Shown here piece after piece: positions 29,285-63,916 of a stretch of DNA of 64,000 nucleotides (position 1 is its first letter; every line of letters starts with the position of its first letter). The DNA comes from Porphyra umbilicalis (lineage: Eukaryota; Rhodophyta; Bangiophyceae; Bangiales; Bangiaceae). Below the pieces are notes generated by a model. That model saw nothing but the letters and a program-made list of their open reading frames with translations. It was not told the origin of the DNA and ran no database searches. The translations under genes were made by a program, and so were the position numbers. The stretch is taken from the NCBI GenBank assembly GCA_002049455.2, contig KV918793.1, positions 342,128-406,127 of the forward strand. The letters are read 5' to 3'.

Positions 29285-29289
29285 GTACA

Positions 29290-43787: not shown

Positions 43788-43794
43788 CAGATCG
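43788..43794 (+). repeat. 7-bp direct repeat CAGATCG, left flank of composite element
   Basis: CAGATCG directly precedes the TIR at 43795 and recurs at 63910-63916 directly after the last TIR base at 63909. No equivalent repeat flanks either half alone. Confidence 0.7.
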
Positions 43795-43856
43795 GGCGTA
43801 GGAATATCTACAATCCGCCGGCACGCCGCCGTCATCTGGGCATACGGGCTCCATTG
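43795..43856 (+). repeat. Left TIR of half-element X (62 bp)
   Basis: It starts GGCGTAGGAATATCTAC. It is the reverse complement of 53234-53295 with two mismatches; beyond 62 bp the arms diverge. Confidence 0.88.
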
Positions 43857-44631
43857 GCTGCCTTTCCGCGCCCTGAGGGCCTGCCGGCACGCCGCGTCCA
43901 CTGCCGATTGACGCCCGTGCCACTGCCACGGCCAATCATGTGCCTGCGTGACCCCCGTTCCAGGCCCCTTTGGCACGCCCTCCACAGCCTCGAAAATTGC
44001 CCGGGCTCGCCACAATTTTACTGCTTCCCACAAATCTCAGCATCACATTATGCGACCTGTTGTGACCGTTCCTCCTTACATTAATCAGGTGGACCGCGGA
44101 CCACCGACCACATGCCCAGCACCCCTTCAGGTGGGTCCCTCGGGCGGCCGCGCAGGCTCGCTCTCCGACTGCGCGCGCGTGGTGGTCTGGGTGCCCGCCC
44201 TGCAACGTTGGTGATGCTCCCACTTCCTGGGGCCCGGCCTGCTCGCCGATTGTCCTCTTCCCGCCTCGCCCCGGCGGCACGCTGCAACATGGTCGCACGT
44301 CGCACCCTCGCCCCATCACCCCCGGACGTCGGGGGGTGAGAACTCACTATCGGCCTACACCGTTGAATCCCCCTGGCCTCCCCGCACCCGGCTCCCCTCG
44401 ACGACGCTCTCTTCGGCTTTACCCCTCTCCTTGCGCCGTTGGCCCGCCTACTCTTCCCCCACGCATTCAATCGACCACCCCCCGGCACTTCCCCGTCTCC
44501 TCCCGCCACCCTCCTCTACCTGCTCTCGACTGGCCCCCGCACGGCCGCCCGGTGGCCTGTCACCGCCCAACCCGCGGCGGCTGGGCGGCACCGCACCACC
44601 GTTGGTCCTGGTGCCTGCTCTGGTGGTTGAC

Positions 44632-47600
44632 ATGGTCTCCAAAGCGGTGCGTGAGACGCACGCCAAGCTGAAAAAGAACATCAACCGTTTGGTCGGGAGC
44701 CGTATGACAACGGCGTCCGTAGCCAAGATCGAGGTATTGCTCGACCTGGTGGAGCATTTTTCCATTGACAACCCGACGATTAACTTCCACTTGCACATGT
44801 CCGGCTACGACCTCGGCGGCAAGGTGTTTTGGGTGCCCATCTTCGAGGATCAGGTCGTCCTGGACAGCCCTGCCAAGCGCGTGCTCAACATGGTCAACCG
44901 CTACATCGAGAGCGCGGACAGCATGCTTGCCGGCTCCACAACTTTACTGGAGGCAAAGCCCTGGCTTGCTCGTGCTAATAATCGGTCCTTCAAGAAGTCG
45001 CGCCCGCGTGGGCGTCCACCTTCGGCTTCTAACCTCACTGCTTCGACCACACCGTTAGCGGCGGGGGCTCCCTCGACTAAAGGAGCACCACCCGACGCAC
45101 CCCCCCCGTCTACTTTGCCGGATGATCCAGACGGCGCGGACGGCAACCGTACGGGCAGCGACGACGCGGCAACCGACAATGACGCGGGCAGCAACAACTC
45201 GGCCACCGACATGGATGATGAAATCCATTCGAGGGCGGTTCCAACGGGCGGCCGCAACCGGCCGTCGGCAAAGACCTGTCCCGAGACCGCCACCGCGCCT
45301 CTGCCGGTCATCACGAGCATGGCCACTAAGAACGTGGTGATGGAGTTTTTGACACGGTCAAGCAAGCCGCTGACGCTGATGAGGACCCTGGTACCTGCAA
45401 TGGTCAAGAGTGTGTGCAGCGGGGCCTCAGTCGCCAAGATCCGGATCAGCCGCCGCTGGTGGCCCAAGACGGACAAGGGCGAGTTGTGGGAGCAAACCGT
45501 CGAGGTGGAAAACAAGCTGCTGCGCGCGGCGGACAAGACCAAAGGCCCGACCGACGGCGAGACGCTGGTGTACCTGCGGAGAATGCTGGCCACGCGCTCG
45601 GCGCCCGCCACCGAGAGGGTGGCCGACATGCTGCTGATGGTCGAGAGGGAGCCCAATGCCAAGGCGACGCTCATCAAGTACAACCTCCGGCTGAAGCGGA
45701 CGCAGCTACGCCGCACCGTGACGATCGCGCCGATGACAGGCATCGCCATTGCGTCTGCAGAACCTGCCGGCCAAGGCCAGCCCGCTGCGCCAGCCGGCCA
45801 CAGCCAGCCCTCGGCGCACACTGGCCAAGGTCATCACACGGCGCCCGGACCTGCTGCCGTCGCGCGTCCCCAGAGCGCCCGCCTATCGCTTGCCGCGGCT
45901 GCGGCAGCGAGCGAGAGAGCACAAGAAAGTGCACCTGGCTCCGGGAATTGGCTCCATCATTCTGGGCTTTCGCATGGACCACGTGCTGTGGCGCCAGCGT
46001 TCGACCAGACGCGTGTGCGCGAGGCACTAGCGGCCGCCAAAGCCGCGATCGAAGAAGGCGCCGCGGCCGGAACGGCGGCGGCAGGGACTGCGGTGGCAAG
46101 GCTGCCTGCGCTAAGACCCGCGTTTAGAAGCACAGCGGCGGCACGGCCAGCGGCAGCACCACCTGCGGCGGTAAGGACGCCTGCGGCAAGGACGGTGGCG
46201 GTACCAACGGCCGCGGCAATGCTGCCTGCGGTAACGACGGCAGCGGCACCAACGGCGGCGACAAGGCCGCCTGCGGTAAGGACGGCGGCGGCACCAGCGG
46301 TGGCCGCAAGGACGTCTGCGGAATGGACGGTGGCTGGACCAACGGCGGCGGCAAGGCCACCTGCGGCAAGGACGGCGTTAAAACGTACGGCTGCAACAAC
46401 GCCGACCGCGGTACAGACGGCGGCGAAAAGGCCGCCTGCTGCAAGGTCAGCGTCCACAAGCTCGGCTGCGGCACCAACGGCGGCATCGCCAATGGCGTCG
46501 GCAATGCCGTGTGCGGCAAGGACAGTGCCTGCAAGCACGGCGGGAGTACGAAAGGTGACGGCATCAAGCGCGGCGACAAGGCCACCTGCAGCAAGAACGG
46601 CGTTGACGGGCACGGCGGCGGCACCGACGGCGGCGGCACCGACGACGTCGGCAAGGCCGTCTGCGGCAAGGACGGCACCTGCTGGCACGGCGGGGGTACG
46701 GACGGTGGCGGCACCAACGGCGGCGGCAAGGCCGCCTGCTGCAAGACCGGCGTTCACAGGCGCGGCGGCGGCACCGACGGTGGCGGAACCGAATGTGGTG
46801 GCACCTGCGGCTTGGGCTCCAGCGGTAGAGGCACCGACGGTGGCGGCAGGGGCGGCGGTGGCACCGATGGTGGCGGCAAGTGCGACGGCGGCACGGAAGG
46901 TGGCGGCAACGATGTCGGCGGCAAGGTCGTTGGCGGAAAGCACTGCGTTGGCAGGGGAGGCTGTGGCAAGCGCGGAGGCGGCAGGGACGCACAGGATGAG
47001 GTCGAAAACGCCGGGTGGGGCTGCGGCGTCGAACATTGCTGTTGCCGCTGCGGCTGTGGCAGTTCAGACGAAAGCGTCGCCTGCTGCACCATCGCGTACG
47101 CAGCGGCCTCCGACGGCGGCACCCCTGGCATTGACAACGCGTCCTCAGCCACCTCCACTGCTGACGCCGATGGTGCCAGACTCCACGTGGGCGCGGTTGC
47201 CCCCTACGGCGCAAGAGGTCCAGCCAGCAAATTTGCCGTGGGCGCGCTCGCTGCTGCCAAGATCTTCTCGTGCCGTCGGATCGGCGGCCGCTGCGAGGGC
47301 GACGCCATCGACGACTTCAACAGAGAGCAGGAACGAGCAGTCAAGTGCGTCAACTGCGGCGCCGTCGACAACAACGGCAGCATCGTCTCATAAGCCACCC
47401 CCGATTGCGTCTACGGCGTTTCCTGTGTTGCCGGTGGTGCCCGCCGCCATCGGCGTCCATGCGCGGCCGCCCTCCGCATTCCTGTCGACGTCCTCGAAAA
47501 ACGCGAGCGCTTCCGTCTCTGCTGTCGAGCCCTCTTCCAGTTCTCCCCTGAGACTACAGCCCGAAGCCCCGCCCCCCAAACCCCGTCTACCGTCTCACCG

Positions 47601-47805
47601 ACGCCCAACTTACCGAAACCGGGCGGTACTCTCGCCGATTTACCGGCTCCCGACGAGATGCCGCACGACGAGATGCCACCCAACGAGCGGCAGCTGCACA
47701 AGCTGCCACCTGAGGAAGTCCAGAGAGGCAGAACGGCACATCTGGTGGGTGCTCCTGCCCCGCCACCCAAGCGGCCCACGGCTGCAGCCCCACCACGGCG
47801 GCTAA
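44632..47805 (+). CDS. Unknown large protein with Ala/Pro/Thr repeat region
   Basis: ATG 44632 follows a pyrimidine-rich leader and opens a 1057-codon frame. Residues 1-125 look globular (KLKKNINRLVGSRM, HLHMSGYDLGGKVFWVP). An acidic Asp/Asn-rich linker follows, then a second globular part at about 220-370 (KNVVMEFLTRSSKPLTLMRT, ISRRWWPKTDKGELWEQ). From about 46080 to 46990 the frame is a degenerate tandem repeat of Ala/Pro/Thr/Arg units, and a Ser/Pro-rich tail follows. The frame probably leaves the true coding phase near 47530-47600, where the overlapping next frame takes over. I recognise no domain. As the first gene inside the TIR of X it may encode an element-specific DNA-binding or accessory protein. 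That is inference from position. Confidence 0.5.
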   Translation: MVSKAVRETHAKLKKNINRLVGSRMTTASVAKIEVLLDLVEHFSIDNPTINFHLHMSGYDLGGKVFWVPIFEDQVVLDSPAKRVLNMVNRYIESADSMLAGSTTLLEAKPWLARANNRSFKKSRPRGRPPSASNLTASTTPLAAGAPSTKGAPPDAPPPSTLPDDPDGADGNRTGSDDAATDNDAGSNNSATDMDDEIHSRAVPTGGRNRPSAKTCPETATAPLPVITSMATKNVVMEFLTRSSKPLTLMRTLVPAMVKSVCSGASVAKIRISRRWWPKTDKGELWEQTVEVENKLLRAADKTKGPTDGETLVYLRRMLATRSAPATERVADMLLMVEREPNAKATLIKYNLRLKRTQLRRTVTIAPMTGIAIASAEPAGQGQPAAPAGHSQPSAHTGQGHHTAPGPAAVARPQSARLSLAAAAAASERAQESAPGSGNWLHHSGLSHGPRAVAPAFDQTRVREALAAAKAAIEEGAAAGTAAAGTAVARLPALRPAFRSTAAARPAAAPPAAVRTPAARTVAVPTAAAMLPAVTTAAAPTAATRPPAVRTAAAPAVAARTSAEWTVAGPTAAARPPAARTALKRTAATTPTAVQTAAKRPPAARSASTSSAAAPTAASPMASAMPCAARTVPASTAGVRKVTASSAATRPPAARTALTGTAAAPTAAAPTTSARPSAARTAPAGTAGVRTVAAPTAAARPPAARPAFTGAAAAPTVAEPNVVAPAAWAPAVEAPTVAAGAAVAPMVAASATAARKVAATMSAARSLAESTALAGEAVASAEAAGTHRMRSKTPGGAAASNIAVAAAAVAVQTKASPAAPSRTQRPPTAAPLALTTRPQPPPLLTPMVPDSTWARLPPTAQEVQPANLPWARSLLPRSSRAVGSAAAARATPSTTSTESRNEQSSASTAAPSTTTAASSHKPPPIASTAFPVLPVVPAAIGVHARPPSAFLSTSSKNASASVSAVEPSSSSPLRLQPEAPPPKPRLPSHRRPTYRNRAVLSPIYRLPTRCRTTRCHPTSGSCTSCHLRKSREAERHIWWVLLPRHPSGPRLQPHHGG

Positions 47806-48758
47806 GGGCGGCAGCAAGGACGTCGGCGGTAACTGCCGCCCCTTCTGTGAGGTCGATGGCAGCCAGGCAGCTGGCAGCAGCCGCTGCGGCTGGCGCATCC
47901 AAACCGCAGCCAGCCCAAAGACGGCCGCCAGCTGCCAAGCCGCCGCCGCCGGCCAAGCCACCTGCGGTGCCAGAGCCGCCCTTGGCCCAGACGCCAGAGG
48001 CCCAGCCGCCGCCAGCGGCCAAGCCGCCGCCGCCGGCCAAGCTGCCATCGGTTCCTAGGCCCCCGTCGGCCGAGCCGCGAGTGGCGCGCAATGTGCGAGT
48101 GGCATCTAAGCCGCCGCTGCCGCCCAAGCCGCCGTTGCCGCCTAAGACAAATTCCGCCCCATCTACAAGGGGTGCGCACTCCACGGCGATGCGGGCGGCC
48201 TCCGGGTCATCGACGGCGGCGGCGTCAAGGCGGGCAACGACACCGGCCGTGCGCACAACTCGTGCTGCAATGAAGGCATCCCTGCGAAAAGGGACGCCCG
48301 CAATGGCGACGCGGGGGACCACCAAAGCGTCGGCGCCGGCTCCCCAAGAGCGAAACCCCGCGACTACACCGATGTCAGTTGCGCGCGGAAGCCGCGCGCC
48401 GACTGCCACGTCGGCGTCCCCCCCAAGGCCCTCACGAACCGGCATTGCGGCGGCAGTGGCCGCCATGACTGCGGCGCTGACCCCGTGGCCACCTCTAGCG
48501 ACGGGCGGTACGTCGGCGAGGGAGGACGGCGAGGCTTCCGCAAGCCCGACTGCTGGACGGGGTGGAGACCAGGCGGCCCGTCTTCGCGGTTCAAAGCGAC
48601 CACGTGCTAGCCCTGGCGACACTGTGCGCAATGCGGAAGAGCCGGCCCCCAAGTCTTTGCGGAGAGCGTCGGCCGCCAAGTCGGCGCCACAAGAGCCAGC
48701 GAAGAAGCCGGTGCGACGGTCGCCCCGTAAGACGGGGCGCGGTGGTCAAGGGCGTTGA
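47658..48758 (+). CDS. Pro/Ala/Lys-rich basic protein, likely 3' part of the previous gene
   Basis: This 366-codon frame overlaps the end of the preceding frame in another phase. Open sequence in this phase reaches back to about 47525 with natural composition (KPGGTLADLPAPDEMPHDEM). That suggests it is joined to the upstream gene by an intron or a single-base indel (a CAG acceptor-like site precedes TTCTCCCCTGAG near 47541). The protein is rich in KPP/PAKPP units, then Arg/Lys, ending KKPVRRSPRKTGRGG, an AT-hook-like basic tail that suits DNA binding. No family is recognised. It ends at TGA, 48756-48758. Confidence 0.4.
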   Translation: MPHDEMPPNERQLHKLPPEEVQRGRTAHLVGAPAPPPKRPTAAAPPRRLRAAARTSAVTAAPSVRSMAARQLAAAAAAGASKPQPAQRRPPAAKPPPPAKPPAVPEPPLAQTPEAQPPPAAKPPPPAKLPSVPRPPSAEPRVARNVRVASKPPLPPKPPLPPKTNSAPSTRGAHSTAMRAASGSSTAAASRRATTPAVRTTRAAMKASLRKGTPAMATRGTTKASAPAPQERNPATTPMSVARGSRAPTATSASPPRPSRTGIAAAVAAMTAALTPWPPLATGGTSAREDGEASASPTAGRGGDQAARLRGSKRPRASPGDTVRNAEEPAPKSLRRASAAKSAPQEPAKKPVRRSPRKTGRGGQGR

Positions 48759-49060
48759 AGATGCAGACTGACGTGTTCTTGCCGTGTCTATTTTGGCGTT
48801 CATCATGCTTCTCTCCGCTTGACCTTTTGGACTGCTTTGTACAATGAGTGCGTAGGCAATGGCAGGCTCTTTATCATCCAATGGACAGCTAAATGACAGA
48901 AAAACATGCCTCGCCGCGCTCGGCTGCCAAGCGTACGGTTCCTGGATGGGACTCACACACAACGCAAGTCAGCTCCAGGAAGAAGACGAGTTCAACGATG
49001 AAGCGGTTTGTATTTTCTCCTGGAGTTAGTATCCATCGTCGTCAAAGTGCAGCAGTCGCA

Positions 49061-49068
49061 TATAAATA
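49061..49068 (+). promoter_or_regulatory. TATA-like box TATAAATA
   Basis: TATAAATA stands out in a GC-rich region 30-40 bp upstream of the first ATG at 49100 and 374 bp upstream of ATG 49442. It is probably the core promoter of the following small gene. Confidence 0.4.
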
Positions 49069-49441
49069 TGAAGAGAAGTACTTCACATGATCAAGTTCTA
49101 TGGCATGTCTGACCCCAAAGTACGGTGGACGCAAGAAGCGGTTGACCGCCTTTTTGGGAGCTGCCCCAGAGCATGCCTTTCAGGGGGCGGGTGGGGGGGC
49201 TGCTCAAGTGGTCCTCGAGGCGCTCGCGGTAGTCGCAGGCACCCGCCTCCATCGGGCAGTATATCATGCCACCCGCTGGCCTCGTTCGTCCCCAGCATCC
49301 TCTTCTTGCCCCTCGCCATCTGCCCCGCTCATGTGTGCGCTTTTTTTCCGCCCCCCCCCCTCATCCCCGCTTCCTCCACTTCACTTCGCTTCCTCATTCC
49401 CCGCCTTTGCCATCCTCCCTCTTACTCCACTCTCCCTGACC

Positions 49442-49897
49442 ATGGACGCCCCCCACATTCCGGTCTGCCTCCACACTGACCGCACCGCGCCCTTGAAGCA
49501 CCCGATGTACCTGGCGGCGGTCAAGCGCGGGGAGGCGCACCCAGCCGTCACCGCCTTCATCGCTCACGATGTTTTGCGCATGGTGGCAACACACGTCGTC
49601 AAGCTGGTGCCGCCACCCAACCAAGCGAACATGTTCAAGGCGCAGCGTTTTTTGCGGACCGTGCGGGAGGGGTGCTTTTCGCGTCCTGTGTTTTGTATTT
49701 CGATCTGTGAACTGCTTTTTGTACCGGTGGGCGAGTCAGACACCGAGTATCGTAGGTCCCTCCGCCGGGTTGTCGCTGAGTTTGCGGGTAGTGTCTGGGA
49801 CGTGATGTACCGCGCTGAGTGTGCGTGCAAGGAGCACGGAGGTGCGGCGGGGGCGGACGACGACGTGCATCCGCAGTCACACGCCTGCTTTGAGTAG
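49442..49897 (+). CDS. Unknown 151-residue protein in X
   Basis: ATG 49442 follows a CT-rich tract (CTCCACTCTCCCTGACC) and opens a frame of 151 residues of ordinary composition. The frame is also open upstream to ATG 49100, but that part is Ser/Pro-rich leader-like sequence. Visible segments are HPMYLAAVKRGEAHPAVTAF, an alternating hydrophobic helix (VLRMVATHVVKLVP) and a C-terminal Cys pair (ECACKEH). A TATA-like box lies upstream. I recognise no family. It sits between the large X genes and the VAPTAA repeat array, so it may be an accessory protein of the element. Confidence 0.45.
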   Translation: MDAPHIPVCLHTDRTAPLKHPMYLAAVKRGEAHPAVTAFIAHDVLRMVATHVVKLVPPPNQANMFKAQRFLRTVREGCFSRPVFCISICELLFVPVGESDTEYRRSLRRVVAEFAGSVWDVMYRAECACKEHGGAAGADDDVHPQSHACFE

Positions 49898-50279
49898 CTC
49901 GAGTCTGATTACATATGTCCATATCTTCTTTGTCCACTACCTCATTAATGTTGGCTACGTTCGAGAGCCCGAGGGGATACATGCTATATCATGGGTGGAG
50001 TTCTCGTCAACACACCCCACCGTCCTACCCCAACCGACGACGCGTGCTAGTGACGACGAGAATCACATTTCTATCCGATATCCCACCCGCGTAGCCCGCC
50101 TGCAGCTTCTCCATCCAACGCCGCCACGCTGACGGCTACGACAGACCGCATCGTCGGTCACAGCCATATCCGCCACCACAACAGCCCCGGCGGCGCACGA
50201 CCGCCCGCTGCACGACGAAGTGCGCGGCAGTCGCGACAGGCACACTGCCACCGGCCGCCTCCTCCATCTAAACGGCCAT

Positions 50280-51620
50280 CGCCTTATCGGACGCGATCAT
50301 CTTGGCTCGTCGTTGGCCCCAACGACTGTGGCGGCAGCGCGCCTACGTTTGTCGGCCAACGGAGAAACCTCAGCAGGGTGCGCGCCGCCCGGCGCGCCGG
50401 CGCGTTGGCAGGCGCCGTTGGCACCATCAGGAGCGTGCCATCAGCCACTTCGACCATGTTGCAGGCCACCAGCATGTCGTGGCCGAATGCCTGATCGCCG
50501 ATGGCGGCCGCGGCGGTGGGCGCAACGTCCGACTCCACCACCGCTAGCGTGTCACCTGGCGCCACGTCGGCGGGCGTTGTGGTGCACGACTGGTTGCAGT
50601 TCGCCGCCTCCCCCTTTGTGGTGGCCAACACCTGAGCTTTGGCGGTCGGCTGGGCGACAACGGGGGCGGCGACGGTCACGGCTACGCCTGCTCCGACCCA
50701 CACAGCCGCATCGGTCGGCCGCGAAAGCACAAAAGCAGCAGACGCGAGCTTGCCCTCGGCCGGCAGGTTGGCGCCGACGGCGGCGGCGGTGGACGTCGCC
50801 ACGCCCGCCCCCAGCAACACCTCTGCGCCCGCGGGCGGCGGCGGGCGGCCGCGTACACCGTCTTGATGGCGACGGCCTCGTAGACGGCGGTCGGTCAGTG
50901 GCCGACAGGGGCGGCGGCGGGATGCGCTCGTCGTCGTCGGCTGCGTCCCACTTCTTGGTGGCCACCGCCTGGTCGGCGCTGGTTGGCTTAGCGACGACTA
51001 GGGCGTCGACGGTCGCGGCCACATTCGGCCCCATCACCGCCACCGCGTCGGCGTGGCAAACGTCGGAGGGCGGCCGTGAGCTACCAGACGGTCACGACCA
51101 CGTCAGTCTGCTGCCGGTAGGCGTGCGTCGCTCGTCATACGGGCAGATTGCCGTTGGCAATCTCTACCGTCTTCTTGGCCACAACCCCGTCGGCGGCGGT
51201 CGGAGAGGCGCCGACGGCGGCGGTGTCGGTCGGCGCCATGTCCATCTCCACCACTGCCGCCGTGTCAGCCCGCAACATGTCGGCAGGCGTGGTGGACAAG
51301 ATAGGCTCGTCTGCGGCGACCGCCTCTTTCTCATTGGTGGCCATCGCCTCGTCGTTGGCGGTCGGCTTCGCGACATTGGAAGAGGCAGCGGTCGGGGCCA
51401 CGCCAGTCTCCACCACCGCCGCCGCGCCGGCCGGCGGAACGTCTCCAGAGGTGGTGCACGGGACGCGCAGGCTTCCGTGGTCGGCTTGGCGACAATACCG
51501 AAGGCAGCGGTCGCGGCCACGCCAGTCTCCACCACCGCCGACGCGTCGGCCGGCGAAACGTCACCAGGGTGGTGCACAGGACGGGCAGGCTTCCGTGGGT
51601 CGATTCTCGCGGATGGTGGT
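50280..51620 (-). repeat. VAPTAA-type repeat array in X
   Basis: Degenerate direct repeats with a period of roughly 150-170 bp carry the landmark GGCGGTCGGCT(T/G)..GCGAC (about 50645, 50978, 51195, 51360, 51479). On the minus strand they encode variants of a ~50-residue unit with the core VETGVAPTAA...VAKPTANDEA.AT. Similar arrays lie in K at 56020-57130 (same strand) and 58100-59460 (opposite strand). Frames are often broken. It may be a decayed repeat protein or a purely structural subrepeat of this element family. Confidence 0.65.
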
Positions 51621-51679
51621 GACCACCGCCTTCTTTGCGGCCGCCAGGCAGCCGCGCATGATCTCCACGACTGTGGCGT

Positions 51680-53233
51680 TCCCTTAGATCTCGGCCACGT
51701 GCGATCGCTTACCGGCAGCGACTGCGACGCGGCGCCTCTCGGGTGGTCCGTGCGAGAGGGAGTGGAAAGCAAGGGGTAGCAGGGGGTACCAAGAAAATGA
51801 GGGGCGGGAGTCAGAAGCAGGGGAAAGAGGGTAGAAAAGCGGGGGGGGATCGGGTACCCAGGCGAGGGGGTGGGGAAAGCATGGAGAGTTACAATGCACG
51901 ATGGCGGTAGTCCCGGCTGAAGTGCACACCTGCGATGGTTTGCACGCCGCTCCGGGCCGCCGCCAAAGTCGGTAGGGCTGGTGGGAGACGGTAGTGCGAA
52001 GCGGGAGCGGCCGAAAAAAATGCTGTCCCTCACAAACGGAAGAGGTCAGCTCCGCGCCGTCGTGACGGTGGCATGGCACTGCGGGGCACCTGTCCGACGG
52101 TCACAGACCGGTGATGTGGGGGAAAGGGCTGGCCGCCACCGAGGCCACGAGAGTGGCGCTGAGGTGCACCAGGGCGGGTTCCACAAGGTTCCTGGAGGGT
52201 CCAGCCAGAAGAAGCCGCTGGGGGCCCCCCAAGTGCCGCGTGGAGCCCTCAAACTGCTACGTGGAGCCCGTGGGTGTGCGTGAGGCTATCACCACAAGAG
52301 CGCACCCTCTTGTGACAGCAGGAGGACATTGAAACTGTAAAGGGGGGGCGACAATCAATGTAAACGATGCCACGGTGGCGATCTGCACGGTCATTCTGGC
52401 GCGCTGTATGCGTGTAGCAAAGCAGCGCGTGTGTGGTGAAAGGGGTGCCGACGTTGTGGCCACCTCCACCCCACCCTCCTGACCTGATGAGGACAGGAAC
52501 CAGAGCGACAGGAAACCGGCGGTGGACGACCGGCTGACCTGCAATTGAAAAGGTGTCGGCATGCATGCTTCGGCAGCACATCCATGGTTGGGATCGAACT
52601 TTGGCAATAGTGTATCAGATACAGATTCTGCAACGAGCCTCTTCCGCCAATGAGGCCCGCACTCGAGACGACGCCAAGATCTAACCGTGTGAGATCCAAA
52701 ATATTTCCGATGGATATCTAGAGTTTCAGTGATTGCTCGCTACAAGATCGCCAGCCATCCAAAATGACCTGCGTTTCCAGGTCGTCAAGGGGGGTAAATG
52801 TGAACAACTGCGAGGGCCTTGCTAATTCACTCCCAATGTTCTAGCGAGAACTCACTGTACTGACAGAAACTGGTGCCTTCAGAGCATTGTTTTATTGTCA
52901 TTGCTCTGCTCGTCGGCGATCCTTGCAACCGGCTGATCCAACCAGTTGAGGCCGGGTCACGTGGGACGGAAGGACAGCGTTGCGAGGAGAATCTTGCAGC
53001 GTCCCATTGCCGTTGCACTCCACCATCCTCCAGGAGTGTGCCCCCTTCCCACACGGTTACGGCTGCAGCTCCCCGGTGTACATCCACCTGCCAGTGGCAT
53101 GGTGCTTCCTGGGCTGCTGGCGCATGCTCATTTGCCGGTGGCCTTGTGTTCTCTGGGATGTTCGCGTCTCTCTGAGGCAGGACCCGAGTCTGACACTACT
53201 GCATGGCAAGATGTCCCGCATTGGCAGGCTCAG
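51680..53233. other. Non-coding right part of X
   Basis: There is a G run near 51840 and a GGAGCC(C/T)-type duplication near 52215-52270. A 15-base match to the conserved 5' stem of U6 snRNA (52567-52581) lacks the rest of U6. Open frames are short and without motifs. I see no gene. Confidence 0.45.
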
Positions 53234-53295
53234 CAATGGAGCCCGTATGCCCAGATGACGGCGGCGTGCCGGCGGATCGTAGGTATTCCTACGCC
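53234..53295 (-). repeat. Right TIR of half-element X
   Basis: It is the inverted copy of 43795-43856 with two mismatches. It abuts, and shares one base with, the left TIR of K, giving an imperfect palindrome at 53234-53395. Confidence 0.88.
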
Positions 53296-53395
53296 ACAAA
53301 GGAACCCACCGGATCCGCCGGCACGCCAACGTCACCGGCTCTTACGTGCTCCATTGGCCGCCGATCCAGGCCGTATGCGACTGTCGGCACGGCAC
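53295..53395 (+). repeat. Left TIR of half-element K (101 bp)
   Basis: It starts CACAAAGGAACCCACC. On my reading it is identical over 101 bp to the reverse complement of 63809-63909. It is related to the X TIR by the blocks GATCCGCCGGCACGCC and GCTCCATTG. Confidence 0.92.
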
Positions 53396-53496
53396 ATCCG
53401 CTGCTCGGATACTGCGAAAGTTTCGGCGCCCTGGCGCGGGCGCGCCCACGCGGCGGCGAGCGTGGAGGAGCCCGTTGCGTCGGCACGTCACATGCC

Positions 53497-53690: not shown

Positions 53691-54459
53691 GTCGTCGGGG
53701 GACGTGGCTGTGCGAGGCGACGCGCACGTGCTGTTGCGGCCGCACCGCAGTAAATGCGGGGCCGTGATGAAAGAAGGAGCCTGCAAGGGCGCGATGACAG
53801 GCGCGATGCGAGTCGGTGAAGCCGCGCGAAGGCGCACGCGCGGGCGGGCGGGAGTGTTTGCCAGACGTGCTGCTGAAGTGAGGAGCGTGCGGACATCTGC
53901 TCAGGCGCGCCGTTGGATGGGGAAGCCTGCGGACGTCTGCGGATATGACGAGGGACGAAAGGGGGCACAGGGAGCCCTGGGTTATGGAAAAAGAGTACCA
54001 CCTTTTCGCTCAGTAATGGCCAGGCCACAATGTAGGCTGCACCCGCAGACAGACACCATCAGGTGGCATGTGCCTCTCTCATCGGAAGAACTCTCAACAG
54101 ACGCAGGCGGGGCCTCGCGGAGTGCCACCGCTGACGGCATGCTGGACACCTCTGCCCCGTGGCCGCACCGTCCTGCTGGGTACGCCTGTCGGCGACCCCA
54201 ACACGGAGCAGTTGTCATGCCTGCCCCAAAAAGGTGGGGCGGTGTGAAGCGCAACGCGAGGAGAAGGAGCGGTCGGCCTAGCCGCGCGGCCAGCTTGAGG
54301 TCCCCGCGGACCACGACACCTCCTACTTTCCGCCGGCACCCCGTTAGAGCCCTTTACTGGGTACGGTTCCTTATTCATGAAGATGGGAGTGTATGGATCA
54401 CCCGGGGAAAACAACGTGTTGCTACAACTTGGTCTCGAGCCCAAAAGCCTGACCCTGCC

Positions 54460-55963: not shown

Positions 55964-56019
55964 AGCGCCGCGTCAACCAGCTGCTCGTCGCCGGGGGTGA
56001 CTTACGGGACGGGGAGCGT

Positions 56020-57130
56020 GCCCTAGACGGCCTGTAGGTCGCTGGCATCCACCGCCAAATAGGCGTCCGTCGGCTTGTCGGCGAGAGTGCATGCGGCAGT
56101 TCCCGCCTTGTCCGTCCCTACAACCGCTGCCGCGTCAGCCGGCTGCAAGACGGCGCGTGCGGCAAACGAGACCAGCACTTGGGTGGCACCCGCCAGCTCT
56201 TTGTTATTGGCCACCGCCTCGTCTGCTGCGGTTGGCTCGGCCACGACAGCTGCGACGGTCGTCGCGGCCACGTCCACCCCAACTCACCACCGCGTTGGCT
56301 GGTCGGATGTCGACCGGCACGGCTGAAGAGATCGGCAGGTTGCAGTTGGCCGCCTTTCCTTTGTTGGCGGCCACCGTCTCGTGCGCGGCGGTCGGCTTTG
56401 CACCGTCAGCGGGGCCGTCGTCGACGCCACGAGCGTCACCCACCCTAACGCCGCAGAGGCCGGCAGCGCGTCGACTGGCTGCGCGTCGGCCGGCGAGGTA
56501 GAGGCCACAATCAGGCTGCCGCAGCCAGCATCGCCGGTCTTGAAGCTTTCCGACTCGTCGTCGTCACCCGACGTGGCGCCGACGGCGGCGGTTGCCGTCG
56601 CCTCTCCAGCCACCCTCAGTCGCGACAACGCGTCCGCAGGCTGCGCGTCGGCCAGCGAGAGACAGGCTACCAGAAAGCCACCCTCGTTTGCCTCCCCAGT
56701 CTTGTCGGCTGGCGCCTCGTCGGCGTTGCTCGGCGTGGTGCCTCAAACCCGCCAGCACGTCGGCAGGCGGGGCTTCGACCGCCCTGCCAGAGGCGACCGG
56801 CAGGCTGCGTTCGTCCACCTCCCCGGTATAGACGCCTCTTGCCTCTTTGGCGTCGGTCGGCGTGGTGCCGAAGGCGACGGTGGCGGTCGCCGCTGCGGCC
56901 GTCCTCAAACCCGCCAACTAGGTGGCCGGCTGCGCGTCGACCGACGCGGCAGACGCAACGGGCTGGCTGCAGTCTGACGCCTCTCCGGTGTTGACGCCTT
57001 TGCCTCGTTGGAGTCAGTTGACGTGGTGCCGACGGAGGCGGTGGCGGTCACCGCTACGGCTGTCCACAACGCCGCCGACACGTCTGCCAGCTGCAGGCCG
57101 CCGTCGCCTGCCTCCCTCGTCGCAAAGGTG
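56020..57130 (-). repeat. VAPTAA-type repeat array 1 in K
   Basis: Seven or so degenerate units of about 150-170 bp, with landmark positions about 56060, 56228, 56388, 56570, 56735, 56850 and 57008. The minus-strand peptide core is like that in X (VVAEPTAADEAVANNKE; then AADAAAVVGTD). The array directly precedes the transposase coding region on the same strand, and the motif even grades into it (KPTVTDETQ). It could therefore have been an N-terminal repeat domain. Stops and shifts now interrupt it. Confidence 0.65.
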
Positions 57131-58099
57131 CCCTACGCCTCGGCAGAGAGGGACTAGGCGCTCAAGGGGGCACGGGAGAGGGCACTGCTATAGCACCTGG
57201 CCGTGAAGGGGACGCCAGAACGTCATCGCGACAGTGGCCGCCACAATCCATGCAGAGAGGGTGTGCAGCCAAAGCTCCAAGCAGAGGAGGGGGGGGGCGG
57301 GCAGAAGCAGCAACCCAGGGCACGCCACCGGTGCGTGGAAACCAGTAGAGTACGTCTCGAGTGACGCCGGTCCGCAAGAGAGCCGTTGCCATGCCCCACC
57401 TGTGGGCCTCGGCCCACAGATGGGTGTCCTCTGGGACCCCGCTTGGCAGACCCAACGCGGGGAGTGGAGCGAAGCGCCGAGGACGGGTGCCAGGAGCGTG
57501 GAGGCCGAGCTCTCGGGTGAAGCCTCCCAGACCGGCGCACGGTCTGCCGGGTTGATCGGTGGGTCGGTGCCTGCACGATCCAAGCATCGAGGGACCGCAG
57601 TCGCTTACAGACGGCGACTGTCGAGGATATTCCACGCTTCAGGATCGCGCCGTTGTCAGTCACTGGAGCGGTGCGATCGGGGTTTCGGCAGGAGTCTCCA
57701 GATCGGGAGAATGGACGCACTGGGCAGCCTCCAGTTGCGAAAGGACGGCACGAGCCTAGTTTGGGAAAAGGACACGGCCTCGCAGCATCAGCGGTCCACA
57801 GGCAACCCGTCTGAAGACAGTGATCCGGGCCCTCTCCGCCCCACGCTATGGCTGCTCTCGACTGTCCTTCTTTGCATATGGTGGCGGTTGCGACGGCGAA
57901 AAGCACGAACCTCGTGAGCGCGCCAGGAGATCTCACTGTCCTCGGTTAAGTACGAGATTTTTGAGGAACTGGAGTGGTCTGCTATCGACTTGCATTGCTG
58001 AGAATGTCAACTACTAAGTCTGCATATCTGACCGAGATTCGGCGATTACTCTGAATGATGGCGGGCATTTCCGGACATGGGGCGTCAGATCATGGGCTC
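57131..58099. other. Spacer between inverted repeat arrays of K
   Basis: Overlapping frames of about 130-240 codons exist on both strands (57223-57936), but none has motifs or favoured composition. GGGCCTCGGCCCACAG near 57405 forms a short hairpin. I support no gene here. Confidence 0.4.
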
Positions 58100-59460
58100 G
58101 TCGACCCCCGGAAAGGGGCTCCGCAAGTGCACCGCGACGAGCTGGCGGGGGCAACCGACACTAGTGGCGTCTGGCCGACCGTGGCCGAAGGTGGAATGAC
58201 GCCCAAAGCGGGGGAGATGGCCAAGGCTGAGCTGCTGGCTGCGACTGCCGCGACCGCCGACGCGCGGACCGCCAACGCGACGGCAGTGGTGGCTAAGGAC
58301 GCGAAGGATGCCACCGCCGCCGCCATCGGCTTTAAGCCAAGTGCCGTCCAAACGGTGGAGGCCTCCAACATGAGAGGCAAGGCTGGCAGCAGCTTTCCGC
58401 TTTCGTGCCCCGCACCCTCCAACTCGCGTCCCGCCGACGCGAGGCTAGTGGCGGGCACGGACCTGGCCGCGACCACCCGGCCCCGCCGTTGGCGGCAAGC
58501 TCGTCGCCGCTTTGCCACTGGCGGCCTATGCGGCGAACGGCCAGCGGCTCTTCGTGTCTGAGGCGCCCACCGACGCGCAGTTTGCGACAGTGGCGGTTCA
58601 GTGGCGCCGGACGTGGCGTCGACCGCCGCCGCCGCCGCCGGGGCCACACCAACGGGCACCGGCTCGGCCGTGGTAGTCGAGTCGGGCGAGGGGCCGAAGC
58701 CACATGCCCGTCTCGTCCGCCTTGCGCATCGACGCGGAGCCGGCCGACGTGGCGACAGTGACGGCGACGGATTTGGCGGTCACTACAACTGCAGCGGTCA
58801 GGTTCAAGGCAAGGGGTGCCAACGAGGGGTCGGCCGTTGGGTCGATGCAGCGGTCACCAACGAGGCGGTGGCTGTGAGGACGGGTTTGGAGGACGAGACT
58901 AACCTACTGTTCGTGTTTGTCGCGCCCGCCGACGTGCGGACGTCCCAAGGGCGGCGGTGGTGACGACGGACCAGGCAGCACCCGCCACAGCCACCGTCCG
59001 CGAGAAGCCGACCGACGCCGGCGGGGCGCTGGCCACCACCAAGACGGAGGCCACCACGGCGATAAGCTGATTGCCTCTGCCGCGCCCACCAACATGCATT
59101 CCGCCGACGCGGCGGAGGCGGTCGCGACGGGGCGGCGATGGCGCCGACGGACGAGGCGGCACGGTCACCGCCGCCGTCCACACAGAGCCAACCGACGCAA
59201 ATGGGACTGTGGCCACCAAACGACGGACACGGCCAACAGCAACAACCATTCAACTCGGACGCGCCTGCCGACGTCCATTCGACCGACGCCGCGGAGGCGG
59301 TGGCGACGAGGCGGCTGTCGAGGCGACGAAAGGTGCGGCTCCCGCTACCGCCGCCGTCCGCGCCAAGCCGGCTGCCGCCAACGGGGCGGTGGTCGCCTAC
59401 GGAGGGAGGTGGCCGATGGCGCCGACCGTTGACAAGCTGAAGAGACCACGTCGACAGGCT
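58100..59460 (+). repeat. VAPTAA-type repeat array 2 in K, opposite orientation
   Basis: The same repeat family as at 56020-57130 and 50280-51620, but coding on the plus strand: TAAVHTEPTDANGTVATK near 59170, AAVRAKPAAANGAVVAYGG near 59350. Arrays 1 and 2 thus form a loose inverted pair around the 57131-58099 spacer. Confidence 0.6.
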
Positions 59461-59663
59461 GATGGAGGGATGAGTGTTCTATGATTGCTTTATTCTCTTC
59501 GCTGAGCACTCAACTGTTCCACCCGTCCACTTCTTGATCGATGCTATTGTCAAGGAGATCTTGGTGGCGGTTGCAGTAGGGAGCGCAAGAAAAGGAGTAT
59601 AGGGTCGTGTTCATGCAGGACAAAGCGACGGCACAATGACAAATAGAGGCAGCATGCAAACAT

Positions 59664-60304
59664 TTACAGGGAACCGGACAGCAACTCGGCTGCTATCCGA
59701 CGGCGATGGTACGAAGAGCTCCCGCCCCAACCGACGACCGCTTCGCCCTTGGACATGAGCTCCATATGCCGGCACATGAAGACACCGCAATGGTCATTGT
59801 TTTCTTGAATGCGGCAAGGCATTGTGACGACGCTCCAATCTTCTTGGGCCAAGCCGTGCAAGGAGGCCTCCTTCTCGGCCCACCGCGCAAGATTCTTTCC
59901 CATGTGCTCCTGTGCGCCGCCGAAGAGTCGTGGAGCTCGACGCGCCCCGCCCGCCGGGATGACCACCGCCAAAAACCAATGCGCATCTGTGACATTAACA
60001 GGGACGAAGATCTTGCGGGCCTTGAGCACGACCTCTTTCTCGTCCAGCGCCGCACCGCGTCGTGGTTGAAGCGGCCATTCTCTGTGAGCTTGTCGAAGAA
60101 GAAAGAGTTAAAAAAGATGTAGCGCGGCTTAGGACGCACGGACGACGCAAACTTCATCTGGCGGACGCGCAGCAACTCGACGTACGCGTTGACGAGCTCG
60201 TCATTAAACCACTGCTTCGGCAGCGTCAGCAGGAAGTCCTCTAGCTGCACGGATGGGACCGATCTTGACAAGCACGGTGGCGACGCCATCGGGCGGCGCG
60301 ACAA
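59664..60304 (-). pseudogene. ULP1/C48-type SUMO protease (frame-disrupted)
   Basis: This minus-strand sequence shows the ULP1 order. QWFNDELVNAYVELL is the start motif W..D..I. YIFFNSFFFDKL follows. VNVTDAHWFLAVV holds the catalytic His with its Trp. RVELHDSS holds the catalytic Asp. CRIQENNDHCGVFMCRHM holds the oxyanion Gln and the catalytic Cys in HCG. The motifs alternate between two reading frames (changes near 60050, about 59940 and about 59900), so at least three indels separate it from an open gene. ULP1-like proteases are common passengers of KDZ, CMC and MULE transposons, where they may counter SUMO-linked silencing. Its place inside K agrees. The C-terminus ends at 59664 with a hydrophobic SGSL. 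Confidence 0.8.
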
Positions 60305-61279
60305 TGGCGTCAGCGGTCGCCTTGATGGCGCGCAGCGTCAGCGGTGACAGCGGATCCGCCCGATCAACAGCGACTGGGTCCTCGCTGGCGTTTCCCCCTT
60401 CCGGGCACCTCCTCGGTCTCCCCCTCCTCCAGCCGCCACGCGTCGCCACCACCCGTGTGGCCGACCGACGCCGTGACCGCCGCGTAGGGCGCGGTAAGCG
60501 GGCGGCAGTGCTGTACCTCGGCGGCGTCTCGTTGGAGGCGGAGAGGAAGAGGACGAGGAAGAGCCCGACCCCGCAGCAGGACGGCGGCGACGATGGGGAG
60601 CGCGGCGCAGGCGGCTGAATGCCATCGAACGCCGAGGCCCCGTTGGCGGACAACAAGCTGCACTCGGGTTGTTACCCGCCGCACCTGTTTCCCCGACTTG
60701 CACCGCACCGCCCTCGAGCTCCATCGCACTGCCGCCGTCGTCGGTGGCGTTGCCGACCGAATCCCCGCTGCCAGCGTCGGCATCGGCTTGGTCGATCTCT
60801 TCATCGCTGGTGCCGCTGTCGTCGTCCGTTGCTGCTGCTGGTCTCTTGGCCGCTCGCCAGGTCCACTCATCGTATTCGTCCCCGGAAGCGGCGCTGCTTC
60901 GATGCCGGCAGCATGCGGGGGGGGGTCGAGCACGGCGGCAGGCGCGGCTTGCACAGCGGGCGCCTAGCATCCCCGCGCCCGTGGACCGCCAATAAAGTGT
61001 TTGACAACTTGGCTGCAGACCACCTGAGCGCCCGCTCGTCATCGATCGGCGCACGCTGCATGTCACCATCGGCCGTGGGCAGTGGTGGGGCTGCGGGAGG
61101 TGGCTCATCTGCAGCAGCCACAAATTGGGGCCACACGCGCGACTCGGGCAATGGTCAGCTCGACCCCCTCCTCCGGCTTGGCCCGGAAGCGGCGGCGCCA
61201 CAAGCCCCCGCATCGATGAAGTCCGGATCGCACACGCGAAAAGGATGGAGAAGTCGACCGTGGCGCGTTGCTGCTTGGC

Positions 61280-62200
61280 CGAAACATCTCCTAGACGTGT
61301 GCTTGGAGCACCGAAAGCATTTGACCGTCACACACAATGCACTTGAACGGCCCGCCGGCGGACTCCTCCCGGCCACAGTGGTGGCACTTGAAAGCCGCGG
61401 CCGGCACAACCAGCGTGTCCGAGAACTCGCCCGGTCGCGTCGGATAGCAGCTGCCGGGCGTTGACTAGGCTCGCCCTCTCCGTAGGCTCCGTTGTTCCTC
61501 AGCAGCCCCGTCAGGTACTGGCATGCCGCCGCCATAGTCGACCCGCGCGATTAACGCACAGCTCCAGCACCAGGTCCAAGAAGATGCGCGCGTAGACACC
61601 TCTTGTGTTGCAGCAAACAGCCCGTCGCCCGCCCCGTCATACAAGACGTCATGGCCGTTGACGCATCTCCACTGGTCCAACCAAGATTTGCATGCGTCCC
61701 CTCACGGTGACCAGAAGGGAATGTTCTGGGACGACAGCGAGTCGCCCCGCGGCTCCTGGCACACGATGCACTTCTCCTCCACGTGAAGCCTCGAGGTCGT
61801 ACCGGTACATGTTGTCGGCTGCGCGGGCCGCGTCCACAAACTTGCAGTAGACGTCGCACAACGCCACCTCCTGCGTGCACGGAACATATTGCGTGCACGA
61901 CGGGGGCGCGGAGGTGCGCGGCAATGCGGAGTTAGCGGAGGCGGCGGCCGCGGGCTCGGCGGGGGCGGGTCGCCCATCTCGTTAAGCACACCAGTAGGTC
62001 CAAATCGCAACGCCTCTTGAGCACCCGCTGCAGCCTCCGACGCAGCCGACGCCTCGACTCGGTTGAACTTGTTGACGGCCTTGGCATGCGGGCACCCCCA
62101 AGGCTGGGTTTGGCAGGACAGGAGGCAGCACGTGGCCAACTTGTACCGGTTTCCACCCGTCGGACGATGGCCGGAGCCAGATGCTGCTGTAGCAGATAGC
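61280..62200 (-). pseudogene. Cys-cluster part of KDZ-type protein (frame-disrupted)
   Basis: On the minus strand, Cys/His-rich segments follow the SWIM-like part in shifting frames. They are CCLLSCQTQPWGCPHAKAVN (about 62100), EKCIVCQEPRG (about 61765), DQWRCVNGHDVLYD (about 61660), FLDLVLELCVNRAG (about 61575) and a tidy pair, AFKCHHCGREES then FKCIVCDGQM (about 61320-61395). The last ends at TAG near 61292. KDZ transposases are usually preceded by such CxC clusters, and the spacing of hydrophobic and Cys segments agrees. At least three indels or introns are needed to join them. As the protein upstream of the protease and transposase, it would be the DNA-binding part of the element's machinery. 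Confidence 0.5.
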
Positions 62201-62235
62201 GTACAGCGGGATGTTCATCCGCCTGCCGACCTTGC

Positions 62236-62950
62236 CTACGTTGTGGACGACCGTCTCGTACGGTTTCCGTCTGCCGTTAGGTTGGGGCCGCGCAAGGACG
62301 GCATCACGCGGATCAGCGCCTCGGGCGTTTGCAGGCCCAACTCAGCCGACATCATGCGGTAGGCCGCCAGCAGCGCCGCCGCGTGGCGACAAGTGGAGCT
62401 CTTCTTGCGCTTCCACTGTATCTCGACGTGTTCGAGCGCGTGATCCACCGTGGTCGCCGAGCCGCTGCCCATGACGCCGCCGCAGGAGCAGAAGGCGGCG
62501 ACGTTGCCCTTGATCAGCGCCGTCCAGACGCAGATGGGGTCGAAAGCCTCGACAAAGCCAATGACGTTCGCGCCGTGGACGCACCCGCCCTCGAGCTCGT
62601 CGTCGCCGCCCATGCGCGCGTCGAGGCCGACTGCCACGCGGAGCTCCGAGAGGAAGACCGTTACCAGCTCCTCCACGGAGTACGCCCGCTCCATCTTGGT
62701 AGGCTGGCGCGGCTTCTTGGGGCGGGTGCTCGAAGCGGCAGTCGATGCAGCCGCCTTCAGCCCCCGACGGCGGCTTGCTCGCTGTGCTTTGGAGAGCGCA
62801 GCCGGCGTCGGTGCCGCCCCCGGTCCGTCGGTGTCGGCACTTTGCAGTGCAGCGTGGCTGGCGTCTTGCGCACTGTCAGGCGGCCCGCCGTCATTGTCGT
62901 CGTAGCCGTCATCATGCGTGGCCCCGGGGTTGCGCCAACCGAGGCGTCTC
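62236..62950 (-). CDS. SWIM-like zinc-binding N-terminal part of K protein
   Basis: The minus-strand frame is open from about 62950 to a TAG near 62236. It begins with an acidic linker (DDGYDDNDGGPPDSAQ) and a basic patch (RRRGLK; RPKKPRQPTK). A globular segment follows (MERAYSVEELVTVFLSELRV, Met at 62694), then VWTALIKGNVAAFCSCGG and, ~30 residues later, SSTCRHAAALLAAYRM. CxC...CxH followed by an Ala/Leu helix is the SWIM zinc-finger pattern found in KDZ and MULE transposases. After LRGPNLTADG the frame probably shifts by one base into RKPYETVVHNVGKVGRRMNI, which continues the protein towards the Cys clusters. The true start is not certain. Confidence 0.55.
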
Positions 62951-62959
62951 CCGCATCGT

Positions 62960-63808
62960 GGTTGGCAATGTAGTCGGTGTAGGCGCTCCGCCTGGACAAG
63001 TAGCGACTGAGACGAGTCTCCTACGGGAGGTACGCGTCTTCAGCGTTGTCCTCAACGACGGGTAGGCTGTGGAGAAACCCACACATGAGGAGGCGACGGA
63101 GCGGTTGGCCGTGGGCGCCCTCTCCATGTTGTTCCCCGAGGGGGCACAGCGGACGAGAAGAGCGGGGGGAGACGGTGGGGGTGGGGGATACGGTGGGAGC
63201 CGATGGGGGTGGGGGTGTCAGAGGTAGGGCAGCACGGGGGGATGGTGCGATGGGGTAGTCTCGACAGTTCAATACATGCATGGAGGGGTGTGGTACTCGT
63301 TGAAAAATGCCGGGTGGGTGGCAGCGGGTGTTGGCTCCGGGGTAGTCCGTCGGGGTCGGGTGTGGCGAAGCGGACGACGCTCCGCGCTCCGTGGACGCGC
63401 GGCGGGCGTCACGTCGGAGTGGAGGCGGTTCCAGTGCGCGCGCGCGCCCTGCCTGACACGCTCGAACCGAGGTCCATGTGAACCGATGCGGGGTCCTTGC
63501 AGGTGCGGCCGGGCCGAAATTCTGTCGCCTGTCACATTTCATGGACGATGCTCATTGGTGCGTCAAGTGCTGACCGCGCATGCTCATCCAATCGTTCAGC
63601 GGCTGACAGCATCAAGCCCCCCCCGTCAGAGTGCAGCAGAGGGCGCTGTGGGAGCACGAAAATTGCATTACCAGGGGCCAAATTTTGTAGCAGCGGCCGG
63701 TGAAAAGAGGCCCCCTACCCCCAGAATGCCCCATCAGCGCGGCCCGGAATTGTGGAATCTCGCTCTCTGATTGGCCGGGCCGCAGGCAAGGTGTGATCGG
63801 CATGGGAC
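62960..63808. other. Right subterminal region of K, no gene
   Basis: A G-rich stretch at 63160-63240 repeats GGGGG(T/A)G motifs. GC-rich sequence follows up to the right TIR. Only short frames without motifs are present. The region probably holds the promoter and leader of the minus-strand K gene. Confidence 0.45.
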
Positions 63809-63909
63809 GTGCCGTGCCGACAGTCGCATACGGCCTGGATCGGCGGCCAATGGAGCACGTAAGAGCCGGTGACGTTGGCGTGCCGGCGGATCCGGTGGGT
63901 TCCTTTGTG
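63809..63909 (-). repeat. Right TIR of half-element K (101 bp)
   Basis: It is the inverted copy of 53295-53395, apparently without mismatch. It is followed at once by CAGATCG (63910-63916), the partner of the repeat at 43788. Confidence 0.92.
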
Positions 63910-63916
63910 CAGATCG
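63910..63916 (+). repeat. 7-bp direct repeat CAGATCG, right flank of composite element
   Basis: It is an exact copy of 43788-43794. Allowing 8 bp would add one mismatch (T/G on the outer left side). It closes the 20-kb unit. Confidence 0.7.

What the first reader, a model, noticed from the sequence alone, without database searches (positions are those of the whole stretch)
43788..63916. 20-kb paired macro-transposon flanked by one 7-bp duplication
Two TIR-bounded halves (X 43795-53295, K 53295-63909) with related TIRs lie tail to tail. CAGATCG occurs only at the two outer edges of the pair. Neither half has its own duplication. This suggests that the pair moved as one unit, like a bacterial composite transposon, or that K inserted exactly at X's end. 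Either would be unusual for a eukaryotic KDZ-type element, and the unit carries several unknown genes.
Basis: partly seen in the sequence, partly recalled or inferred. Interest (0 to 1): 0.88.

Follow-up and report, generated by a model that had tools for sequence, protein, structure and literature searches.

The report
Two-part transposon jumping as one
In what looks like a red alga, two different jumping-gene segments, each with its own matching end repeats, are fused end to end and spread together as one unit of about 20 kb, an unusual architecture for a eukaryotic DNA transposon.

Summary
The X and K halves (43795-53295, 53295-63909) abut with no spacer, and a 7-bp duplication lies only at the outer edges. 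In the window's unnamed 83.8-Mb genome, all 11 X-inner ends found (10 loci) abut a K-inner end in the same order. All five completely read pairs carry a 7-bp outer duplication (7/7 in four, 6/7 in one). Neither half has its own. Paralogous empty sites carry one copy: a 180-nt site near C335, and 38 uninterrupted repeat copies matching the joined C49 flanks. The pair therefore transposes as one unit. K encodes a KDZ-related transposase (borderline family match) and an Ulp1-protease protein; X encodes two unknown proteins. X1 is convergent to a KDZ-like gene in 28 of 33 nearby pairs, so the gene partnership is old. Inner TIRs are nearly as conserved as outer ones. Against: four loci with X1 and a close KDZ relative (C67 twice, C412, C275) showed no inner TIRs. 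Best reading: two related transposons joined end to end and mobilised through unlike outer ends. Rival: one old transposon that gained a central TIR pair. Precedents: KolobokP, maize macrotransposons, multi-TIR MULEs, Teratorn.

The parts
43788..43794 (.). left target site duplication CAGATCG
43795..53295 (.). X half, TIR-bounded
43795..43856 (+). X outer TIR (GGCGTAGG...)
   Evidence: (97% complementary to 53234-53295)
44632..48758 (+). X1 gene region: unknown protein; open frame of 1471 aa in copy C19 (1378 aa from the first conserved Met); split into several frames in the window copy; limits approximate
   Evidence: purifying selection; no Pfam match
49442..49897 (+). X2 gene region: unknown protein of about 150 aa; start approximate
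   Evidence: no Pfam match; selection not shown
53234..53295 (-). X inner TIR
53295..53404 (+). K inner TIR (CACAAAGG...), directly abutting the X inner TIR
53295..63909 (.). K half, TIR-bounded
54422..55972 (-). KDZ-related transposase gene; the window copy has frame breaks, an open 527-aa frame exists in copy C422; limits approximate
   Evidence: borderline KDZ match of a homologue
59664..63127 (-). second K gene: C-terminal Ulp1/SENP-type protease, cysteine pairs and a weak SWIM-like match (open frame of 1253 aa in copy C49); limits approximate
63800..63909 (-). K outer TIR
63910..63916 (.). right target site duplication CAGATCG

Best explanation
This is a compound (double) DNA transposon. 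Two related TIR transposons are fixed end to end with no spacer: X, with two unknown genes, and K, with a KDZ-related transposase and an Ulp1-protease protein. The 18.8-21.1 kb pair is cut and pasted as one unit through the unlike outer ends (X-outer and K-outer), making a single 7-bp duplication. Shown: recurrent exact pairing in fixed order, a duplication at the outer edges only, empty sites with one copy, conserved inner TIRs, purifying selection on X1 and both K genes. Inferred: that K's transposase acts on all four ends (they share a core sequence); that the junction arose once by direct joining of two flush transposon ends, which would explain the missing spacer; and that the back-to-back inner ends, having no flanking DNA between them, rarely release a half alone but still bind transposase and are therefore kept. 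That the pair moves as one unit I hold at about 0.95; the fusion-of-two reading at the confidence given.
For: All 11 X-inner ends found abut a K-inner end: 0 bp between them, apart from the window copy's one shared base. Outer 7-bp duplication 7/7 in 4 of 5 complete units and 6/7 in the fifth; at lengths 5, 6, 8, 9 and 10 it is exact in 0 of 5. Empty site at C335:39547-39726, 180 of 180 nt, 99%; 38 of the 40 places scored against the joined C49 flanks are uninterrupted repeat copies, 84-94%, the other 2 being the C49 flanks. TIRs come as half-specific matched pairs: K-in matches its own K-out at 96.4% against 89.6% for other units (1 of 120 permutations as good, five units); X 95.2% against 91.4% (24 of 5040, seven units). 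Inner TIRs are nearly as conserved as outer (X 92.3 vs 92.9%, K 89.0 vs 91.4%, five units), and over seven units stand above the adjoining 150 nt (X 91.6 vs 77.8%, K 86.6 vs 73.7%). Copies 98% identical sit at different sites (C422, C363, C33), so the unit moved fairly recently.
Against: Four loci with X1 and a close KDZ relative show no inner TIR in the searches: C67 (two, with K-outer ends, flanks alike so perhaps one insertion duplicated), C412 (X-type outer end near X1) and C275 (8.5 kb, both outer ends, 6/7 duplication). They may be diverged or deleted, or may have one TIR pair only. X1 lies beside a KDZ-like gene, convergent, in 28 of the 33 KDZ-like loci with X1 within 22 kb, so X and K genes may have shared one transposon before any inner TIRs. 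For X TIRs the pairing is weaker: the inner ends of C33 and C252 match another unit's outer end better. Half-specific matching could also come from gene conversion. X has no recognised transposase.
Confidence: 0.55

Rival explanations
1. One old transposon carrying X1, X2, the transposase and the Ulp1-protease gene, whose centre gained a pair of TIR copies (internal TIRs, as in some plant MULEs and Teratorn); it was never two elements.
For: X1 and KDZ-like genes are convergent in 28 of 33 nearby pairs; in 14 of the 28 the KDZ protein is only 55-64% identical to this one and in 4 only 41-46%. C67 (two), C412 and C275 show no inner TIR. Published internal TIRs also lack their own duplication and are largely conserved (PMC3310237, passages); in Teratorn both excision and integration were seen after an internal TIR was added, though all integrations sequenced there used the internal TIR (PMC5601938, passages).
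Against: The inner ends are an X end and a K end, back to back, resembling the outer end of their own half. Internal duplication of a TIR would not obviously give two different, half-matched ends with zero spacer.
Confidence: 0.38
2. K repeatedly inserted into the exact end of already inserted X elements (targeted nesting).
For: The two halves have related TIRs, so targeting of a transposon end is conceivable.
Against: No 7-bp duplication around K in any of 5 complete pairs; the same inner ends abut in 11 of 11 junctions; no X-inner end without K was found. Two X-type ends that look like chance neighbours (C47) are 14 bp apart.
Confidence: 0.04
3. Spread by segmental duplication or recombination rather than transposition, or an assembly artefact.
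For: C335 lies beside a duplicated flank, C67 carries two K-outer ends in similar flanks, and the window copy sits at a contig end with many indels.
Against: Different flanks with 7-bp duplications at each of the five complete copies, empty sites, 10 separate loci.
Confidence: 0.03

Closest known systems
KDZ (Kyakuja-Dileera-Zisupton) transposons
   Same: A homologue 57% identical to K's transposase matches PF18758 at 1.1e-5; two relatives of the second K gene match the KDZ-associated CxC4 cluster.
   Different: Scores lie just under the curated cut-offs; the family's own proteins have no such match; 7-bp rather than the 8-bp duplication reported for Zisupton (PMC12730594, passages); two TIR-bounded halves.
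KolobokP composite-like transposons of animals
   Same: A eukaryotic lineage with composite-like architecture and extra ends inside (PMC9587614, abstract and section 14).
   Different: There an internal region lies between two direct long terminal repeats, with solo repeats and multimers common; here two unlike halves abut and no solo half was demonstrated.
Ac/Ds macrotransposons and composite insertions of maize
   Same: Ends of two elements mobilise everything between; excision of a 28-kb unit left a modified 8-bp duplication footprint (PMC9910405, passages).
   Different: Described there as alleles arising from reversed-ends transposition; here one junction recurs at 10 loci of a diverged family.
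MULEs with multiple TIRs (plants)
   Same: Internal TIRs without their own duplication, conserved about like external ones over most of their length (PMC3310237, passages).
   Different: Mostly tandem TIRs at the ends of the element; here back-to-back unlike TIRs in the centre of a four-gene 20-kb element.
Teratorn (piggyBac-herpesvirus fusion)
   Same: Fusion of two mobile entities with internal TIRs; excision and integration were seen once an internal TIR was included in the assay (PMC5601938, passages).
   Different: Partner is a virus and the element is 180 kb; different transposase superfamily.
Bacterial composite transposons (Tn5/Tn10 type; recalled)
   Same: Outside ends of two elements move the whole.
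   Different: Two copies of one IS flank a third segment; here two unlike elements abut with nothing between.

Membership tests
KDZ transposon superfamily | KDZ transposase domain (PF18758) | tested here: inconclusive
   Own protein: 0 families. 1 of 18 aligned members matches, 25.7 bits against a cut-off of 26.6.
KDZ transposon superfamily | CxC cysteine clusters associated with KDZ transposases | tested here: inconclusive
   PF18717 in 2 of 36 relatives of the second K gene, 24.9 and 26.3 bits against 26.9; not in the family's own protein.
Zisupton | 8-bp target site duplication | tested here: not met
   7 bp exact in 4 of 5 complete units, 8 bp in 0 of 5.
Bacterial-type composite transposon | outer ends of two elements mobilise the whole, one duplication around it | tested here: met
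   (inferred from sites; no movement observed)
Bacterial-type composite transposon | a third segment between two copies of one element | tested here: not met
   zero spacer, two different halves
KolobokP | long terminal direct repeats around an internal region | tested here: not met
   The end repeats found are inverted and the halves differ in content.
Macrotransposon (Ac/Ds sense) | unit bounded by ends of two separate elements with a duplication outside only | tested here: met
Macrotransposon (Ac/Ds sense) | observed excision or reinsertion | not testable with these tools
   Only paralogous empty sites.
MULE with internal TIRs | MULE transposase and 9-11 bp duplication | tested here: not met
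   7-bp duplication; no MULE domain in the proteins scanned.

The most novel reading that the evidence does not exclude
An obligate four-ended transposon: the transposase must engage the back-to-back inner ends together with the outer pair, so that two elements with separate genes and separate end types live as one replicating unit, and this architecture runs through the wider X1-KDZ lineage of this algal group.
Probability: 0.22. Interest if true: 0.82.

Novelty: new variant of a known kind. Interest (0 to 1): 0.62.

Why it matters
Composite transposons are standard in bacteria, but long-lived, diversified ones are rarely described in eukaryotes, as far as my searches went. Here one junction persists in copies whose noncoding parts are below 70% identical (C18 against the others), and the unit moves with outer ends only about 70-76% alike. 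That makes a mechanistic question testable: how a transposase chooses among four ends, and why inner ends not seen to be used alone stay conserved. It also shows how a eukaryotic DNA transposon can carry a second gene set.

Tried and rejected
AlphaFold models of the K transposase (mean pLDDT 42) and of the X1 N-terminal part (34) were too poor for a fold search; none was run. X1 has no PDB relative, no Pfam match and one hit in the protein collection (P0092). The viral-contig scan for the transposase gave no relative. No Rfam match in the window or in two C335 stretches. ARAGORN's one tRNA-Ala (47955-48046) lies in repetitive GC-rich sequence of the X1 region and I disregard it. The inner junction folds as a strong hairpin in the 3 of 3 junctions folded, of 11 known, but two related TIRs placed back to back do that anyway, so I do not take it as evidence for a terminator. 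A pattern for back-to-back cores found 6 places, control 0; all 6 are among the 11 known junctions, so it missed 5 and says nothing about divergent families. Contig-end copies (C422, C363, C457) lack the X-outer end, so their duplications could not be tested; the same holds for C19, C252 and C13, where an outer end was not found or not tied to the unit. Unresolved loci: X-outer without X-inner at C90, C247, C236, C275 (and an X-type end at C412); K-outer without K-inner at C67 (two) and C275; C252's X-outer 50 kb from its X-inner; ends at C189 and C47 not assigned. A solo or truncated half at some of these is not excluded. After rechecking the calls I lowered the fusion reading from 0.60 to 0.55 and raised the internal-TIR rival from 0.33 to 0.38, because C67 and C412 had been left out of the evidence against.
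Full report
Origin of the window. The window is G000:C33:342128-406127, at the end of a contig of an unnamed 83.8-Mb genome in 665 contigs; the window is 63% GC. The relatives of its K proteins that carry an organism name are from Pyropia yezoensis and Pyropia vietnamensis, so a Bangiales red alga is likely but not proven. All genome-wide counts below come from searches that score only the best candidates, so they are lower bounds.

The observation. X (43795-53295) and K (53295-63909) are each bounded by inverted repeats (62 nt and 110 nt, 97% complementary); X-outer and K-outer TIRs are 76% alike over 96 nt. CAGATCG flanks the pair. The motif also occurs elsewhere in the window (8 places in all, both strands), so 'only at the two outer edges' is not literally right, but the flush position is. 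The window copy shares one C between the inner ends. Its K half differs from the overlapping contig C457 (same right flank, 91 nt identical) by 6 mismatches but 67 gap positions in 8006 aligned columns, whereas C457 against C363 has 113 mismatches and no gap in 7986. I therefore treat the one-base overlap and the frame breaks of the window copy as probable contig-end errors.

Recurrence. A K-TIR search gave 30 matches (22 K-type, 8 X-type) and an X-TIR search 23. By position and adjoining sequence the 22 are 11 K-inner and 11 K-outer ends. With a later search and a fetched stretch there are 11 X-inner ends. All 11 (C33, C457, C335, C49, C15, C18, C19, C422, C363, C252, C13) abut a K-inner end directly; the window copy lacks one base there and C457 has one substituted end base. 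C33 and C457 are one locus, so this is 10 loci. The inner end is always the same end of each half, so the order is fixed. No X-inner or K-inner end without its partner was found. Loci where only some ends were found (C90, C247, C236, C67 twice, C275, C412, C252's distant outer end, C189, C47) are unresolved, and solo or truncated halves there are not excluded.

Outer duplication and empty sites. Five pairs, 18.8-21.1 kb long, are readable from end to end: CAGATCG (C33), GCCGCCG (C335), AAGCCCA (C15) and ACGTGGG (C18) match 7 of 7; AAAACAT/AAAACAC (C49) matches 6 of 7. C275, an 8.5-kb derivative with X-outer and K-outer ends whose middle was not read, has TCCGCCA/TTCGCCA, 6 of 7. Cross pairs of different loci average 2.00 matches, maximum 5, in 30 comparisons; exact lengths of 5, 6, 8, 9 and 10 occur in 0 of 5 units. 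Around the inner junction neither half shows a duplication in any of the five. I searched two of the five joined flanks. The C335 empty site exists 16.6 kb upstream on the same contig, 180 of 180 nt at 99%, with one GCCGCCG. The C49 unit interrupts a dispersed repeat: 60 candidates were seen and 40 scored; 38 of the 40 run across the join at 84-94% identity and the other 2 are the C49 flanks themselves. The pair thus entered as one block.

Gene content. K: one open frame of 1253 aa in copy C49 with a C-terminal Ulp1/SENP-type protease (PF02902, 1.3e-21; SENP1 structures, 6.6e-19), with a weak SWIM-type match only in a window piece (14.3 bits, cut-off 19.6); and a 527-aa open frame in copy C422 related to KDZ transposases. 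The KDZ label is indirect: one of 18 aligned members matches PF18758 (25.7 bits, cut-off 26.6), and two of 36 relatives of the other protein match the KDZ-associated CxC4 cluster, also just below cut-off. X: X1, a 1471-aa open frame in copy C19, and X2, about 150 aa; neither has a Pfam match. dN/dS: X1 0.20-0.36 in 20 of 21 pairs (0.52 in one); transposase C-terminal part 0.04-0.07 in 5 of 6; SWIM part 0.24-0.36 in 5 of 6; Ulp1 domain 0.15-0.24 in 9 of 10. The exceptions in the last three sets are near-identical pairs. X2 gives no sign of purifying selection there (0.46-1.70 in the 9 of 10 pairs that could be computed), although 61-65% of its residues are kept in the distant copies C18 and C19.

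An old partnership. Genome-wide, matches cluster into 61 X1 loci and 74 KDZ-like loci; 33 KDZ-like loci have X1 within 22 kb, 28 of them convergent, 4 in tandem, 1 divergent. In 14 of the 28 the KDZ protein is 55-64% identical to this one and in 4 it is 41-46%. So X1 and the transposase travel together well beyond this family. Nearer relatives give a warning: C67 (two loci with K-outer ends), C412 (X-type outer end) and C275 have X1 and a close KDZ relative but no inner TIR. They may be decayed, deleted or built with one TIR pair.

Inner ends. Over five complete units mean pairwise identity is 92.9% for X-outer and 92.3% for X-inner TIRs, 91.4% for K-outer and 89.0% for K-inner; the 150 nt inside the outer TIRs are 88.0% and 87.6%. 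Over seven units the inner TIRs average 91.6% (X) and 86.6% (K) against 77.8% and 73.7% for the next 150 nt. Each half's inner end resembles its own outer end: K 96.4% against 89.6% for other units (five units; 1 of 120 permutations reaches it; C422, C363 and C457 left out as near-copies of C33), X 95.2% against 91.4% (seven units; 24 of 5040), although the X-inner ends of C33 and C252 match another unit's outer end better. Selection and gene conversion between inverted copies both explain this. A mosaic comparison of the five units shows a change of closest relative near 49.8 kb inside X, not at the X|K junction, so the junction is not a visible shuffling point.

Mechanism. Shown: movement as one unit with a 7-bp duplication. 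Inferred: K's transposase cuts at X-outer and K-outer, whose shared core gives it a binding site at all four ends. Two flush transposon ends joined directly would give exactly the zero-spacer junction; insertion of K next to X would have left 7 bp on both sides of K. With no DNA between the inner ends, releasing one half alone would cut the other as well, which may keep the pair together. Why the inner ends stay conserved is open. Teratorn, where both excision and integration were seen after an internal TIR was added to the reporter (and the integrations sequenced used that internal TIR; PMC5601938, passages read), is a precedent for a functional inner end.

Comparison. Closest in print, as far as my searches went: KolobokP (PMC9587614, abstract and section 14), multi-TIR MULEs (PMC3310237, passages), Ac macrotransposons (PMC9910405, passages), Teratorn (PMC5601938 and PMC10175614, passages), giant transposons in general (PMC6431247, passages). 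Chlamydomonas is reported to have Zisupton and Kyakuja elements (PMC8226300, passages). None of the passages I read describes two unlike, TIR-bounded halves fused back to back as a standing family; that is a statement about those searches and passages only.

Verdict. A real, recurrent compound transposon; a new variant of a known kind (composite or macro-transposition, internal TIRs). One unit: about 0.95. Fusion of two elements 0.55, one element with later inner TIRs 0.38.

Noticed in passing
window 53295-63909 (C33) against C457: The window's K half has 67 gap positions but only 6 mismatches in 8 kb against the overlapping contig of the same locus: contig-end sequence is indel-rich, so frames in this part of the window are unreliable.
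   Followed up: yes
L031 (C47, around 123522-123620 of the contig): Two X-type ends face outward back to back with 14 bp (two times 7) between them, perhaps two neighbouring insertions and a contrast to the zero-spacer X|K junction.
   Followed up: partly
C67 around 24323 and 108638: Two K-outer ends lie in very similar flanks about 84 kb apart on one contig, so a flank with its insertion seems to have been duplicated.
   Followed up: no
window 21558-31088: Copia-type LTR retrotransposon genes (gag, integrase, reverse transcriptase), apparently two elements or fragments.
   Followed up: no
L045-L046 (C19, 355001-370000): The K-outer end of the C19 unit was not found within the fetched stretch although X and the inner junction are present; its K half may be interrupted or truncated.
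   Followed up: no
   Followed up: no
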